From Thermodesulfobacteriota bacterium (GTDB lineage: Bacteria > Desulfobacterota_D > UBA1144 > Nemesobacterales > UBA2774), in assembly GCA_040754335.1 (NCBI GenBank), contig JBFMCV010000003.1, forward strand, positions 359,356-423,355: a stretch of 64,000 bases of DNA, in the 5' to 3' direction. The notes under the pieces were generated by a model, which ran no database searches, was not told where the DNA came from, and saw only the letters and a list, made by a program, of their open reading frames with translations. Shown piece by piece: positions 45,208 to 50,280 of the stretch. Every line of letters begins with the position of its first letter. Positions within the stretch are counted from its first letter, which is position 1. Made by a program: the position numbers and the translations under genes.

Positions 45208-46581
45208 CTATTTCCTCTGGCTCCCGTCGGCGCAGAGCTGAGTGAGGATGCTGCACGGTTTTTCACTCCGGCCGTCGCACTCCTCCATCGCGGCCTTCAC
45301 CGCCTCGTTCATGTCGGCGTAGTAGCCCCATCCGAGAGCGCCGTCCTCGCTCCTCGCCAGAGCTCCGCAATCGGTGAACGAAATCCTCATCTGACAGTTA
45401 GGCCCGTACTTCACACACTCGTCGACGGAAGCCTTCTCCGCCTGGACCCTCGTGGGATAGTTCCAGGCCACCCCGTATTGCCCGTTGTCCGCCGTGGCTA
45501 TGGCGCCCCAGACATTAACCCGCTTGACGCTCCCGTCGGCGCACAGCTCGATGAACGAAGTACAGAGGTCGCTCGTATATTTGTGACATTCGGTGACGGC
45601 GTTGTTTCTCGCGAGATTGACCGTAGAATTAGTAGCCCACCCGTAGGAACCGTCAGGCGCCGTGGCGTATACAGCACAGTTATTGAACGCGACCCTCAGC
45701 TCGCAGCCCGTGTTGAATTGACTGCACCTCTCTATGGCGTCCTTCTCGGCCGACTGCTTCGAGGGCATGTTAGTTGAGAAACCCCAGCCCCCGCTGGGAG
45801 CAATCGTGATAGCTCCCCAGTTCCCCTGGTTGTCGTACGGTCCCGGAGTGGACGTGTTATAAACGGGCGGCGGATTGTAGTCGGTCGGGCCCGGTATTAT
45901 CTGATTTTGATTATTGTTCGACCCATGGTTGTCGTCGTCACCGCCGCCGAAGATCAGATACCCGGCCAACCCAAGAACCAGAACTGCAGCTATTAAACCT
46001 CCGAGCTTCTTCTTATCTTCAGTGAAAGATTTCCCGCCCGAACCGTCCTTCTTCTCAAGAGGCCTTATGGTCTCCATGCGCGGGTCCGGCTCCCTCTTCG
46101 CTCCTCCGGTGGCGGGAGGAGAAACGCTGGAATCGGCGGCAACGCCGGCATCGGAAGGAGTCTCCGGACGCGCCCCCTGTCTCGAGAGAAGTAGTTTTAT
46201 TGTTGACAGCAGCTGTCCCAGGTGCTTTTCGAGCGGCGGGGTCAGCGCGTCGAGCCAGTGCGGAGCGCTTATGAAATATTCGAGGGATTTGTTGGGGTCG
46301 ACGTCTTCAACCCTGAACGGAATAACGGGTATTCCCTTGCTGACAGCACGCTCTACTTCCCTGATTATCTGCTGGGATTCATTGGCATTCGAGGAGAAAA
46401 CAAGCACCATTACCCGGCACGCGCTTATGGCGTCTATAATTGCTTCGCCCCACTGGGTGCCCGGTACTATGTCTCTCGGCGCTATCCAGCACCTTATGCC
46501 TCCGTTTTCCAGAGTCGCGCATACTGCATCAGCTACAGGTTTATCTTTCGCTGAGTGACTGATGAATACATCATGTGCCAT
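45208..46581 (-). CDS. TIR-domain protein with one membrane span and DUF4189-like C-terminus
   Basis: A 457-residue protein. Residues 1-130 are a TIR domain: DVFISHSAKDKPVADAV, IRCWIAPRDIVPGTQWG, VLVFSSNANESQQIIREVERAV; E75 sits where NAD-cleaving TIRs have their catalytic glutamate. A Pro/Ser/Lys linker leads to one helix (GGLIAAVLVLGLAGYLIF, ~194-211) with lysines before and acids after it, so the TIR should be cytoplasmic. Beyond it an Asn/Pro/Gly linker leads to two copies of a Cys-rich unit (WGAITIAPSGGWGFS ... and WGAIATADNGQYGVA ...) of DUF4189 type, likely outside the cytoplasm with disulfides. GGGGGA precedes the ATG. Third gene of an operon with two SLOG-like membrane proteins. Confidence 0.85.
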   Translation of the reverse strand: MAHDVFISHSAKDKPVADAVCATLENGGIRCWIAPRDIVPGTQWGEAIIDAISACRVMVLVFSSNANESQQIIREVERAVSKGIPVIPFRVEDVDPNKSLEYFISAPHWLDALTPPLEKHLGQLLSTIKLLLSRQGARPETPSDAGVAADSSVSPPATGGAKREPDPRMETIRPLEKKDGSGGKSFTEDKKKLGGLIAAVLVLGLAGYLIFGGGDDDNHGSNNNQNQIIPGPTDYNPPPVYNTSTPGPYDNQGNWGAITIAPSGGWGFSTNMPSKQSAEKDAIERCSQFNTGCELRVAFNNCAVYATAPDGSYGWATNSTVNLARNNAVTECHKYTSDLCTSFIELCADGSVKRVNVWGAIATADNGQYGVAWNYPTRVQAEKASVDECVKYGPNCQMRISFTDCGALARSEDGALGWGYYADMNEAVKAAMEECDGRSEKPCSILTQLCADGSQRK

Positions 46582-46632
46582 CTGTTTTCCCCCTCTCCAG
46601 AGGAAATACTGGAGGATTATAGCTGTGATTGA

Positions 46633-48420
46633 CTACCCAGGCAACACCAAGCGCTTGGATTGAAAGACGATTCTCCAGTCTAGTGTTTCAGAAGACATTA
46701 CCTCGGCCGTATTCTCGGCGATGCGTCCCAGGAATTGGTAAGAAGGTACGAAATCCGCCTTTTCGAGCTCGTTCCTGAGGTTCTCGAGATGTGCGCTCAT
46801 GGCCTCGGACCTCTTCGCTATCTGCTCGAATTCCCCCTGAGTCCGGATGCCGTAGAACGCCGCGCCGAAAGCAGGGAACACGGCGCTGCAAAGAGTGAGC
46901 CAGTCGGAATGCCAGAAGAAATGGGCGGTCGCCGCGAAGAAAGTCAGCCCAAACAGTCCCATGCCAATTATATGCAGTGTGCCATGGATCCTGTGAAACC
47001 GGGGAGAATTTCGTCTATGGTAATTGATCTGTCCGGTTATTTCCTGATCCGACAGGAAGTCCCTGTAGGCGACGAGGTATTCTCTGTCTATCCTGGCGCC
47101 GACCATCCCGGCCTCGCGTACTATCGCCCTGAAATGCCAGTTCACCCACGTGCTCCTCGGGTCTCCGTACGTATCGTGCGCAGGCACTCTGAACGCAGGC
47201 GTCGTGAGGCCGAGCGGTGTAAGGAACCTTAGCTGCCTCAGCTGCTCGGACAAGAGCCTGTAGTCTATCCACCTCTCGTGCCATCGTTTAAAATTCCCTA
47301 CCACGGTTATCCCGATTATCAGCACGATCAGTGCCAGCTCGCAGACTATCCAGCGAGTACCGAATCCCTCCGTGGTCGGGATAAGGAGAGCGAAGAAGAC
47401 CGCGAAACCGGCCATCAGGTAATTGGCCACAAAAGAGCTCCTGTATATATTCGAATAATAGTTGGCGAGCTTGTCAGCCCACGTGTAGTGCAGAAGGAAT
47501 TTGTCGTTTATCTGCCCCTTCACGGATTGCGGGAAGTCCGGACACGCATCCCAAACCTTCCGCCACTCTTCCGCAGTCTCCTCCTCGAAGTCCCTCACCC
47601 TGAATCCCCCGGTGTCTATCCTTTCGCCGCTGAAAATATTGCAGAAAGCCTCGAACAAGAATCCCCACGTCCATGCGGGCTGCTTCTCGTTGAAATACGT
47701 GCGGCTGAGGTCGGGTTTCTTCGGGTACTCGGGCTTGAGGATTCTCTTCAGTCTGAGCTCTAGCTCACGCAGGCCCACTTCCCTGAACCCTTCGTATTCC
47801 CCGCCCATGAGCACCATTACTTCATGCGGTGTCGCGGAGCTGATCCAGACGACAGGGATTTCGTTTACGAGCGATTCCCTGACGATCTGACCCGTGCCCC
47901 CCTTCCCTTTCGCATCCTCCCCGTCCCATATAGCGATAAGCACGTCGCTCTGCGCGAGCACCATACGGCCTACCGTCTGATATGCCTCGTTCTCGAGATC
48001 GGGCGTCGCCCGGGAGCCGTCGAGCTCGAGCACCGAAGAAGCGTTCCCCAGCACCGTGCGGTATTTTCCAAGCGACTCCCCGTCAGTGAAATCCTTTTCG
48101 TATTCATGCCGGTCGAAGGGAAGCGGGCACTGGAGCTCATACCCTTCCGCGAGCGCAGCTTCGGCCACGAGCATGTCCGCCCCCTCGGCGAGTGGCGATA
48201 TAAGCCTTAGTATGGGAGGTCCCCCGTCGGTATACAATGATTCGAAAGACGATTTCACCTCGCGGGCGACATCGCTCACGTGCTTCAGGACCTCTTTCAC
48301 CTTCATCCCGAGCAAGTCGATATCCGCCCTGTCGAGGCCGCTAGGACGGTGACCCGTAACGCCTACCCTGACCGCGAGGCGGGCTTTCGGCGGAGATTCC
48401 GTTTTATTTATTGCGTTCAT
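46633..48420 (-). CDS. SLOG-like nucleotide-sensor protein with four membrane helices
   Basis: A 595-residue protein. The N-terminal ~230 residues look like a SLOG/DprA-type Rossmannoid: VRVGVTGHRP (18-26), LISPLAEGADMLVAEAAL, and SDVLIAIWDGEDAKGKGGTG with the G-rich phosphate-binding loop. After a linker come two pairs of membrane helices (~331-350, 356-375; ~482-502, 506-524). The motif HERWIDYRLLSEQLRQLRFL follows the first pair and a charged helix follows the second, resembling SLATT/DUF4231-type membrane domains. SLOG and SLATT domains are known partners in nucleotide-triggered conflict systems. It starts 6 bases after the previous gene, 51 bases before the TIR gene. Confidence 0.75.
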   Translation of the reverse strand: MNAINKTESPPKARLAVRVGVTGHRPSGLDRADIDLLGMKVKEVLKHVSDVAREVKSSFESLYTDGGPPILRLISPLAEGADMLVAEAALAEGYELQCPLPFDRHEYEKDFTDGESLGKYRTVLGNASSVLELDGSRATPDLENEAYQTVGRMVLAQSDVLIAIWDGEDAKGKGGTGQIVRESLVNEIPVVWISSATPHEVMVLMGGEYEGFREVGLRELELRLKRILKPEYPKKPDLSRTYFNEKQPAWTWGFLFEAFCNIFSGERIDTGGFRVRDFEEETAEEWRKVWDACPDFPQSVKGQINDKFLLHYTWADKLANYYSNIYRSSFVANYLMAGFAVFFALLIPTTEGFGTRWIVCELALIVLIIGITVVGNFKRWHERWIDYRLLSEQLRQLRFLTPLGLTTPAFRVPAHDTYGDPRSTWVNWHFRAIVREAGMVGARIDREYLVAYRDFLSDQEITGQINYHRRNSPRFHRIHGTLHIIGMGLFGLTFFAATAHFFWHSDWLTLCSAVFPAFGAAFYGIRTQGEFEQIAKRSEAMSAHLENLRNELEKADFVPSYQFLGRIAENTAEVMSSETLDWRIVFQSKRLVLPG

Positions 48421-48426
48421 TTCATT

Positions 48427-50280
48427 CTACCCTTTAGGCACTTCTATGGGCACGTTCCTGTGGGTCCAGAGCCAGTCACTGTTCTCCAAAAGCGCCTCCC
48501 TGCCCACGGCGATGAGTATCCTTTCCGGCGGCACTTTGCCGACCTCAAGCTCCCTCTTCGCAGAGGCGTAAGTCCGCTGTGCGAGGCTGTACCTCCTTTC
48601 GAGCTCGTCGTAAGCCTTTTTATTCTTATACGCCTGGGCCGCGACTCCTACCGCTGCGATCACACCCAGGAGTATCTGGAAATTATTTATAGCCTCGCTG
48701 TTCCCCACCCCCGCGAACAAAACATACATGCCGTAGACAAGAGCGACCAAAAGAGTCAATACAAAGGACAAAAACATGATATTCCCGAACTGTCGCGACC
48801 TTACCAGGAGCGGCCTTTTCTTCGATCCGAAATAATCGAGCTGGGATTGTATCCACAGCTTCTCCGTGATATCCAATGATGTCTCTTTTCTCCGAGAAGG
48901 CTCTCCATCACCGCCTCTCAGAGTCATTATCTCGATGCTCCTCACGGCCTTCCTGATCCATGTGAGCAGTCCCTCGTACTTGCTCAGGTAATGCGAGGAC
49001 ACGTTCTCGTTTATGCCGCAGAGCGTCCAGAAGAACTGCACTCTGAGCCCTTCGGCAAGCGCCCTGTAGTCGAGGAAACGGTCCTCGACCCTGTCCCTCG
49101 AGGTCTTTTTTACCAGGAGCGCGATCGCGGGGATGAGCCCTATATAACACAGGACCAGGTAAGAGCTCCAGTCGATGAGACCATAGAGAACAACGGCTGC
49201 AAAAAAGAGGACGTAGATCCAGTTGATGAGGCCCGCTGTCTTTTTTTGATATAACTGTGACAGAACATCCGCGCCAGAGTATAGGCAGATTATTTTACGG
49301 AGCGCAGGGTCCCCGGATATCTGCTCGTTATCCGATTCGCTCTGCAGAAGATAGTGTTTGGATTTCATAAGATCTATTTCACCGCGGTCGTCAAAATAAT
49401 TCTTTATATCGAGGTTGAAACCGTCGATCCTTTCCATTATGCCAATGAATGGCGATCTTTCATATCCGTCCGTGATACCGGCAACGTTCTTTGTAAAGAC
49501 AGAATCGTAGAGGTTGTCGAGGAGTCCGCTTACAGATTGGACAAGACCGAACAACTTGCTGGATACCGCTCCATAAACGGCGCCGGTTAAGCTGCGGGGT
49601 TTCTCAGGGCCAGCGGTCCCCGGTGGCGGAGCATCGTCGGGCGGGGCGTATTCCACTTTTGCCCCGGGACCAGCCGGGTCTATAGAGATTATCATGCTGC
49701 TGTCCATTGTATCCAGTCCGGATTTCGTCCCCCTGAGCGAGTACTCACGCGTTATGCCGCCATCACGCATCCATCTGATTATGCTGGCCGTCGCATCGGG
49801 CTCGCGCATGTCGCTACAGCCGGAAACTGCGATAAGAATTTCGCTGTGCTCGGCGATAAATGCGGCGGCGAAAGTATCGGTCATAGCCTGATTCTCCTCC
49901 GTGCCGTAACCCGCTTCTCCGAGTCTCGACCTCATCAGCGACGGGATATCGACCGACGAAGATGCCAGGGCGAGAAGCTCGGAGAACTCTCCCCTGCTCT
50001 TATCGTCCGGGAGCGCGTCCCGGTATTGAGCGGGCGGGAACGCGAGAACAGCTATAAGCACAGCGGAGAGGTGCTCGACCGCGAGCTTCGTAACCAGACA
50101 GTCTTCACTACCTGCAAGGGAAGATATAACGATGAACGGGGAGTTGGGAAACGTATTCCTGAGCCTGACCATCTCCGGGATCATCAGAGCCGAGATACTC
50201 TCCCGATCGGGGGGATCGCCCTTCCGGCCGCTAATACCAACAACAATCGGGATAAGATAATCATCGCTTATAAGCGGCAT
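48427..50280 (-). CDS. Divergent SLOG-like protein with four membrane helices
   Basis: A 617-residue paralogue of the next gene's product. N-terminal IPIVVGISGRKG and FIVISSLAGSEDCLVTKLAVEH match its neighbour's VGVTGHR and LISPLAEGADMLVAEAAL. The later G-rich loop is degraded (LIAVSGCSDMREPDATASI instead of WDGEDAKGKGGTG), so nucleotide binding may be altered. Membrane helices lie at ~351-369, 372-390, 498-520 and 531-548, with RFLDYRALAEGLRVQFFW after the first pair, as in the neighbour. The middle (~200-330) has a Pro-rich linker and an amphipathic segment. First long gene of the operon; no ribosome site before its ATG, so translation may be coupled to a small upstream frame. Confidence 0.7.
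   Translation of the reverse strand: MPLISDDYLIPIVVGISGRKGDPPDRESISALMIPEMVRLRNTFPNSPFIVISSLAGSEDCLVTKLAVEHLSAVLIAVLAFPPAQYRDALPDDKSRGEFSELLALASSSVDIPSLMRSRLGEAGYGTEENQAMTDTFAAAFIAEHSEILIAVSGCSDMREPDATASIIRWMRDGGITREYSLRGTKSGLDTMDSSMIISIDPAGPGAKVEYAPPDDAPPPGTAGPEKPRSLTGAVYGAVSSKLFGLVQSVSGLLDNLYDSVFTKNVAGITDGYERSPFIGIMERIDGFNLDIKNYFDDRGEIDLMKSKHYLLQSESDNEQISGDPALRKIICLYSGADVLSQLYQKKTAGLINWIYVLFFAAVVLYGLIDWSSYLVLCYIGLIPAIALLVKKTSRDRVEDRFLDYRALAEGLRVQFFWTLCGINENVSSHYLSKYEGLLTWIRKAVRSIEIMTLRGGDGEPSRRKETSLDITEKLWIQSQLDYFGSKKRPLLVRSRQFGNIMFLSFVLTLLVALVYGMYVLFAGVGNSEAINNFQILLGVIAAVGVAAQAYKNKKAYDELERRYSLAQRTYASAKRELEVGKVPPERILIAVGREALLENSDWLWTHRNVPIEVPKG

What the first reader, a model, noticed from the sequence alone, without database searches (positions are those of the whole stretch)
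45208..50280. Compact operon pairing a TIR protein with two SLOG-like four-helix membrane proteins
Seen directly: three minus-strand genes, 6 and 51 bases apart. The first two share the same layout (N-terminal Rossmannoid resembling SLOG, two pairs of membrane helices, a RxxDYRxLxExLR motif after the first pair); the third starts with a TIR domain with a candidate catalytic Glu75. Established knowledge: TIR enzymes make NAD-derived signals, SLOG domains bind such nucleotides (Thoeris ThsA), and SLOG often pairs with SLATT-type membrane effectors. Inference: the TIR makes or consumes a nucleotide, the SLOG parts sense it, and the membrane parts permeabilise or signal. I know no characterised system with this exact three-part set.
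Basis: partly seen in the sequence, partly recalled or inferred. Interest (0 to 1): 0.85.

Follow-up and report, generated by a model that had tools for sequence, protein, structure and literature searches.

The report
TIR receptor with SLOG membrane-effector pair
A three-gene operon in an uncultured bacterium pairs a membrane-anchored TIR enzyme carrying an outside-facing sensor with two related membrane proteins, one of which keeps a nucleotide-binding SLOG domain; it looks like a relative of the Thoeris immune logic in which the signal opens a membrane effector, but nothing has been tested in the lab.

Summary
The three genes are real, at the stated coordinates and spacings, and form one heritable unit: in 101 genomes of the window's lineage (Candidatus Dadabacteria) all three occur in the same six genomes and none of the other 95 holds the set. 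Gene B (595 aa) is a YpsA/DUF1273-type SLOG domain followed by two SLATT-type two-helix membrane units (AlphaFold pLDDT 88.7; the SLOG part matches DprA and LOG-type structures). Gene A (617 aa) is a full-length homologue of B whose SLOG pocket motifs are gone. B homologues in other phyla were collected without reference to TIR, yet 8 of 21 genomes have a TIR gene within 3 kb (0.19 expected, P about 2e-12). Best reading: the TIR makes an NAD-derived signal that B's SLOG domain reads and its SLATT helices turn into a membrane effect, with A as a non-sensing partner. The parts list was anticipated by work on SLOG/SLATT conflict systems and by Thoeris. The particular set is a new variant, is inherited vertically among housekeeping genes, and may not be anti-phage.

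The parts
48427..50280 (-). Gene A, 617 aa: degenerate SLOG-like domain plus two membrane-helix pairs; first gene of the operon
   Evidence: ORF; full-length homologue of B, hhalign 99.5%, E 2.9e-23; found only in the six trio genomes of 101
49747..50241 (-). Gene A aa 14-178: SLOG-like domain whose pocket motifs are lost (GHR to GRK, AEGAD to AGSED, WDG to SGC, GGT to DAT); fastest-evolving domain of the operon
   Evidence: hhalign to B SLOG 97.3%, E 2.6e-11; pN/pS 0.44 against 0.11-0.13 in A's membrane part
49111..49230 (-). Gene A first membrane-helix pair (aa 351-390)
   Evidence: hydropathy
49042..49080 (-). Gene A RFLDYRALAEGLR motif (aa 401-413)
   Evidence: sequence
48637..48774 (-). 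Gene A second membrane-helix pair (aa 503-548)
   Evidence: hydropathy; SLATT_1 E 4.7e-4, below cut-off
46633..48420 (-). Gene B, 595 aa: SLOG domain followed by two SLATT-type units
   Evidence: ORF; DUF4231 25.4 bits against cut-off 24.7; NCBIfam SLATT_1 63 bits against cut-off 41, two stretches; AlphaFold pLDDT 88.7
47776..48375 (-). Gene B aa 16-215: YpsA/DUF1273-type SLOG domain with conserved pocket motifs G23-H24-R25, L77-A78-x-G80-x-D82, W165-D166-G167, G174-G175-T176
   Evidence: AlphaFold beta-alpha-beta order; Foldseek to DprA, ShosA and TM1055, probability 1.00; YpsA PF06908 E 7.6e-5 in one family member; invariant or nearly invariant in 27 homologues
47221..47487 (-). Gene B first SLATT-type unit (aa 312-400, two helices)
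   Evidence: NCBIfam SLATT_1 best stretch 312-400; DUF4231 320-398
47236..47274 (-). Gene B RWIDYRLLSEQLR motif (aa 383-395)
   Evidence: R388, E392 and R395 invariant in 27 homologues
46675..47040 (-). Gene B second SLATT-type unit (aa 461-582)
   Evidence: SLATT_1 PF18181 E 1.5e-4, below cut-off; helices H446-502 and H506-529 in the model
45208..46581 (-). Gene C, 457 aa: TIR, one membrane helix, two DUF4189 domains
   Evidence: Pfam TIR_2 1.6e-22 and DUF4189 5.2e-39 with two stretches; hydropathy
46243..46572 (-). TIR domain of C (aa 4-113); candidate catalytic Glu75 at codon 46357-46359
   Evidence: TIR_2; Glu column invariant in all 12 TIRs aligned; pN/pS 0.02-0.04
45949..46005 (-). Single membrane helix of C (aa 193-211), preceded by a lysine-rich stretch
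   Evidence: hydropathy 2.39 over 19 residues
45232..45819 (-). Two DUF4189 domains of C (aa 255-450), six cysteines each, predicted periplasmic
   Evidence: Pfam; cysteines conserved in six homologues; sequence relative of solved structure 7nhz

Best explanation
The operon is a Thoeris-like two-step signalling module with a membrane output. Gene C is a membrane-anchored TIR enzyme whose paired DUF4189 domains sit in the periplasm and report an envelope or outside event (topology inferred). When triggered, its cytoplasmic TIR domain uses Glu75 to cleave NAD+ and releases an ADP-ribose-type nucleotide (inferred from the TIR family; product unknown). Gene B binds that nucleotide in its YpsA-type SLOG pocket and its SLATT helices then change membrane permeability or potential (fold and domains shown; ligand and output inferred). 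Gene A, a full-length homologue of B with an eroded SLOG pocket, is most likely a non-sensing partner that builds or restrains a mixed A/B membrane complex (inferred). The result would be dormancy, death or an envelope response of the cell.
For: SLOG fold of B: AlphaFold, Foldseek to DprA, ShosA and TM1055, YpsA model and DUF1273-annotated homologues. SLATT identity of B over the curated cut-offs. A homologous to B in both halves, with pocket motifs lost. TIR with a conserved Glu and the strongest constraint in the operon. Strict trio co-occurrence, the same 6 of 101 genomes for each gene at full length. B homologues in Acidobacteria, Proteobacteria and Planctomycetes lie next to TIR genes in 8 of 21 genomes against 0.19 expected; in G102 and G490 the only TIR gene of the genome is the neighbour of B. 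Two loci recombine Thoeris modules: SIR2-TIR next to SLOG-SLATT (L013, L049). A Caballeronia plasmid carries B, TIR and WD40 genes in a row. The closest stand-alone SLOGs on plasmids lie in TIR-caspase operons. Precedents: Thoeris ThsA SLOG binds 3'cADPR and TM-macro ThsA is proposed to act at the membrane (PMC11204291); a SLATT protein is required for DRT10 phage defence (PMC12632851).
Against: No ligand, NADase activity or membrane effect has been measured. Foldseek on the whole chain gave no hit at E below 0.001, and ThsA was not among the 50 hits listed. The two SLATT units of B do not align with each other by profile. Thirteen of 21 non-Dadabacterial genomes with B have no TIR_2 gene nearby; some have another enzyme, such as a patatin phospholipase (L051), so the signal source may vary. 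The periplasmic placement of DUF4189 rests on hydropathy and cysteines only.
Confidence: 0.6

Rival explanations
1. Classical anti-phage abortive-infection system: a phage component triggers the TIR inside the cell, and B permeabilises the membrane to stop replication, as in Thoeris. (This rival concerns the trigger and purpose; it shares the signalling steps of the best explanation.)
For: SLATT and TIR families are used in phage defence (PMC11204291, PMC12632851); B homologues occur on plasmids next to TIR and WD40 genes and near an IS3 transposase; a patatin neighbour matches PADLOC phospholipase effectors; DUF4231 is described as enriched in defence islands (PMC10799925).
Against: In Dadabacteria the trio is fixed in one genus and a sister genus as sampled, in conserved synteny with housekeeping genes on both sides. 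The putative sensor faces the periplasm. No relative in 50,697 phage records.
Confidence: 0.4
2. Homeostatic or stress-signalling system: the periplasmic DUF4189 pair senses envelope stress and the TIR/SLOG-SLATT pair adjusts ion flux or membrane potential without killing.
For: Vertical inheritance and housekeeping context; strong purifying selection on the TIR (pN/pS 0.02-0.04) and on DUF4189 (0.11-0.12); predicted ectodomain.
Against: All characterised relatives known to me act in immunity; the trio is missing from the other genera of the family sampled; the loss of motifs and fast evolution of A's N-domain resemble conflict genes.
Confidence: 0.35
3. The TIR is non-catalytic and acts as an adaptor, and B's SLOG is an enzyme or binds another ligand; the neighbours share a membrane complex but no NAD signal.
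For: Some TIR domains are scaffolds (own knowledge); B's ligand is unknown; neighbours other than TIR exist (patatin in L051).
Against: Glu75 and its column are invariant in all partner TIRs aligned, the TIR has the lowest pN/pS of the operon, and SIR2-TIR partners (L013, L049) point to NAD chemistry.
Confidence: 0.15

Closest known systems
Thoeris (ThsB TIR with SIR2-SLOG ThsA or TM-macro ThsA)
   Same: TIR enzyme encoded beside an effector that carries a nucleotide-sensor domain (SLOG in one type) and, in another type, membrane helices.
   Different: Here the SLOG sensor is fused to two SLATT units, there is no SIR2 or macro domain, an extra pocket-less homologue A is present, and the TIR is membrane-anchored with a DUF4189 ectodomain. 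PADLOC and NCBIfam Thoeris models match only the TIR fold, weakly.
SLOG/SLATT nucleotide-signalling conflict systems (predicted by Burroughs, Aravind and colleagues; the 2015 paper is recalled, not held)
   Same: SLATT as a predicted pore-forming effector answering to nucleotide signals, often near TIR or SLOG genes (PMC7159879, PMC9503650).
   Different: The passages read do not describe this SLOG-SLATT-SLATT protein paired with a degenerate copy and a TIR-TM-DUF4189 receptor.
DRT10 (reverse transcriptase plus SLATT)
   Same: Uses a SLATT protein shown to be required for phage defence (PMC12632851).
   Different: The signal is proposed to be cDNA from a reverse transcriptase; no SLOG, no TIR.
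TRPM2 channel (animals)
   Same: An N-terminal SLOG-type domain that binds ADP-ribose species controls a membrane channel (own knowledge); TRPM2 appears among the weak fold matches (6d73).
   Different: Analogy of layout only; the membrane parts are unrelated as far as known, and the hit is weak (probability 0.28).
TIR-caspase-SLOG-TIR plasmid operons (L072, L104, L105), resembling type IV Thoeris (recalled)
   Same: The stand-alone SLOG is the nearest short plasmid relative of B's N-domain and sits with TIR genes.
   Different: The putative output is a caspase-like protease, not a membrane protein.

Membership tests
Thoeris | TIR protein (ThsB) encoded with an effector gene | tested here: met
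   TIR_2 in C, adjacent to B; conserved in six genomes
Thoeris | Effector is a recognised ThsA type (SIR2-SLOG or TM-macro) | tested here: not met
   B and A carry no SIR2 or macro domain; no PADLOC hit at all
Thoeris | TIR product activates the effector; phage defence | not testable with these tools
   needs biochemistry and phage challenge
SLATT domain family | Profile match above the curated cut-off | tested here: met
   B: NCBIfam SLATT_1 63 bits against 41, DUF4231 25.4 against 24.7. A: below cut-off, related by homology to B
SLOG superfamily (YpsA/DUF1273 clade), gene B | Rossmannoid fold related to DprA, LOG or YpsA with conserved pocket motifs | tested here: met
   No SLOG Pfam model matches B itself
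SLOG superfamily (YpsA/DUF1273 clade), gene A | Same test, pocket motifs included | tested here: not met
   Homologous fold region but GHR, WDG and GGT motifs are absent in all Dadabacterial copies that cover them; AlphaFold model inconclusive
Catalytic TIR NADase | Conserved catalytic-position Glu in a TIR fold | tested here: met
   Glu75
Catalytic TIR NADase | NAD+ cleavage | not testable with these tools
   needs an enzyme assay
DUF4189 proteins | PF13827 above cut-off with conserved cysteines | tested here: met
   133 bits over two stretches; cysteines conserved

The most novel reading that the evidence does not exclude
A bacterial, vertically inherited, receptor-like pathway: an outside-facing DUF4189 sensor fused through one membrane helix to a TIR enzyme, whose nucleotide product gates a SLOG-controlled membrane complex built from a sensing subunit (B) and a pocket-less subunit (A), serving envelope surveillance rather than, or besides, phage defence. 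It would be a bacterial counterpart in layout of Toll-like receptor input and TRPM2-like output.
Probability: 0.22. Interest if true: 0.8.

Novelty: new variant of a known kind. Interest (0 to 1): 0.55.

Why it matters
It would add another output to the TIR/SLOG signalling theme (a SLOG-gated membrane effector instead of NAD depletion or a protease), and gives a compact, testable set in which sensor-enzyme and effector are separate genes. The cross-phylum association of SLOG-SLATT proteins with TIR genes makes the long-standing prediction that SLATT proteins are nucleotide-gated membrane effectors directly testable, and the periplasm-facing TIR raises the question of what bacterial TIR systems can sense from outside.

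Tried and rejected
PDB sequence search with B found nothing meaningful. PADLOC found no match for A or B. AlphaFold of A with only four rows gave an unusable model (pLDDT 37.6), so A rests on profile homology. Self-comparison of B's two SLATT units gave no support for an internal repeat. C's TIR and B's SLOG do not align significantly. A TIR-DUF4189 fusion was looked for in 349 proteobacterial genomes: only the TIR part matched; in plasmids no protein covered both halves. The partner of L018 looks DUF4062-like by eye but Pfam did not confirm it, so it is not counted as TIR-like. L053 and L013 patatin neighbours were seen by eye only; only L051 was confirmed. The viral scan returned mostly SLOG-only partial matches and one longer partial match (L073), not followed up. 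The idea that the trio is a mobile defence-island element was rejected for Dadabacteria on synteny. The Burroughs 2015 paper is not held.
Full report
The observation. The three ORFs exist at the stated coordinates, in the stated order and with the stated gaps. Plausible ribosome-binding sequences precede B (AAGGG, overlapping the end of A) and C (GGAGAGGGGG), seen directly in the sequence. C ends 19 bases from a convergent gene.

What the proteins are. B: Pfam DUF4231 (25.4 bits, cut-off 24.7) and SLATT_1 (22.2, below cut-off) cover its two helix pairs, and NCBIfam SLATT_1 matches at 63 bits with two stretches. No SLOG model hits B itself, but one member of its family hits YpsA SLOG (PF06908, E 7.6e-5), and tblastn with B finds a DUF1273-annotated plasmid protein (32%, E 3e-8). 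An AlphaFold model from 12 homologues has pLDDT 88.7 and pTM 0.88, with an N-terminal alternating strand-helix domain followed by long helices. Foldseek gives no match below E 0.001, but the domain-sized matches with probability 1.00 are DprA, ShosA and TM1055, which I know as SLOG-type folds. The residues that stay invariant or nearly so in 27 diverse homologues are those of the expected pocket: G23-H24-R25, L77-A78-x-G80-x-D82, W165-D166-G167 and G174-G175-T176.

A: sequence libraries see it only weakly, but profile comparison aligns it with B from end to end (E 2.9e-23). The two halves do so separately (N-domain E 2.6e-11, C-part E 4.9e-15), while A's N-domain against B's membrane part gives nothing. 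In A the pocket motifs read GRK, AGSED, SGC and DAT, and no Dadabacterial copy that covers the region restores them. A's N-domain evolves fast (pN/pS 0.44) and its membrane part slowly (0.11-0.13). A is therefore best read as a B-like subunit that no longer senses.

C: TIR_2 at 80.7 bits and two DUF4189 domains at 133 bits together, with one strong membrane helix at 193-211 and six conserved cysteines per DUF4189 domain. The positive charges before the helix and the cysteines after it suggest a cytoplasmic TIR and a periplasmic C-terminus (inference). Glu75 is invariant, and the TIR is the most constrained domain of the operon (pN/pS 0.02-0.04).

The unit. The window lies in a 3.26 Mb assembly; the nearest named records are Candidatus Dadabacteria. 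Across 101 genomes of the lineage, B, A and full-length C are each found in the same six genomes, four of one genus and two of a sister genus; one further genome has a TIR-only match to C. Genes are split between contigs in G003, G007 and G010, at or near contig ends. Synteny extends over about 16 kb, with a symporter, a metalloprotease and ribonucleotide reductase around the locus, and the flanking proteins are about 48-98% identical to their counterparts, a range that includes the trio. This is vertical inheritance in a housekeeping setting, not a mobile island.

Beyond the lineage. B homologues were collected by B alone, in samples of 297, 399 and 294 genomes of three phyla at E below 1e-40 (3, 9 and 5 genomes) plus a scan of genome contigs. 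In 21 such genomes TIR_2 genes were counted genome-wide: eight genomes have one within 3 kb of B against 0.19 expected, P about 1.7e-12. Two of these genomes have a single TIR gene, and it is B's neighbour. Partners include TIR with WD40 repeats (L016), SIR2-TIR (L013, L049), TIR with TPR repeats (L052), TIR-kinase (L056) and TIR-STAND (L058). A weaker TIR with an FGE-sulfatase domain adjoins L047 (E 4.8e-4) and a patatin overlaps L051. A Caballeronia plasmid has B, TIR and WD40 genes in a row. The caveat is that 13 of 21 have no TIR_2 gene close by at that threshold, and that the sample is modest. The catalytic-Glu column is intact in all 12 TIRs aligned.

Mechanism. Shown: folds, domains, homology, co-inheritance and association. 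Inferred: NAD cleavage by C, sensing by B, membrane action by the SLATT units, a structural or restraining role of A, and sensing by DUF4189. The reasoning rests on Thoeris, where TIR products activate SIR2-SLOG or TM-macro effectors (PMC11204291), on the prediction that SLATT is a nucleotide-responsive pore (PMC7159879, PMC9503650) and on the requirement for a SLATT protein in DRT10 defence (PMC12632851). Whether the purpose is phage defence or envelope surveillance is open; the housekeeping setting and the predicted ectodomain make the latter a serious rival.

Novelty. The principle was foreseen by others. The particular set was not found in PADLOC, NCBIfam or the papers read, and the TIR-TM-DUF4189 receptor and the pocket-less homologue are distinctive. 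I therefore file it as a new variant of a known kind: Thoeris-like in working, not a Thoeris member.

Noticed in passing
L072, L104, L105, L103, L102 (plasmids of Rhizobium, Bacillus subtilis, Methylorubrum, Agrobacterium): Compact operons of TIR, caspase-family protein, a stand-alone YpsA-type SLOG protein and often a second TIR; the SLOG component has no NCBIfam or PADLOC model. Possibly a TIR-caspase Thoeris variant with a separate SLOG part.
   Followed up: partly
L013 10023-11435 and L049 6333-7718: SIR2-TIR fusion proteins next to SLOG-SLATT genes: the Thoeris modules in swapped combination.
   Followed up: partly
L051 5033-6259: Patatin-like phospholipase overlapping a SLOG-SLATT gene by four bases, matching PADLOC phospholipase effectors.
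   Followed up: no
L046 1-7384: Four TIR-domain genes on one strand beside a SLOG-SLATT gene, which is followed by a gene that looks like alaS.
   Followed up: no
G000:C2:124398-124757: A second TIR gene in the window's own genome (open frame 335 aa), away from this locus.
   Followed up: no
G001:C118, G002:C36, G003:C37, G005:C26: Stand-alone DUF4189 proteins (open frames 151-166 aa) in sister genomes, a possible source of the ectodomain of C.
   Followed up: no
L020 2603-4732: 709-aa membrane protein directly downstream of a SLOG-SLATT gene in a planctomycete MAG, without any confident Pfam match.
   Followed up: no
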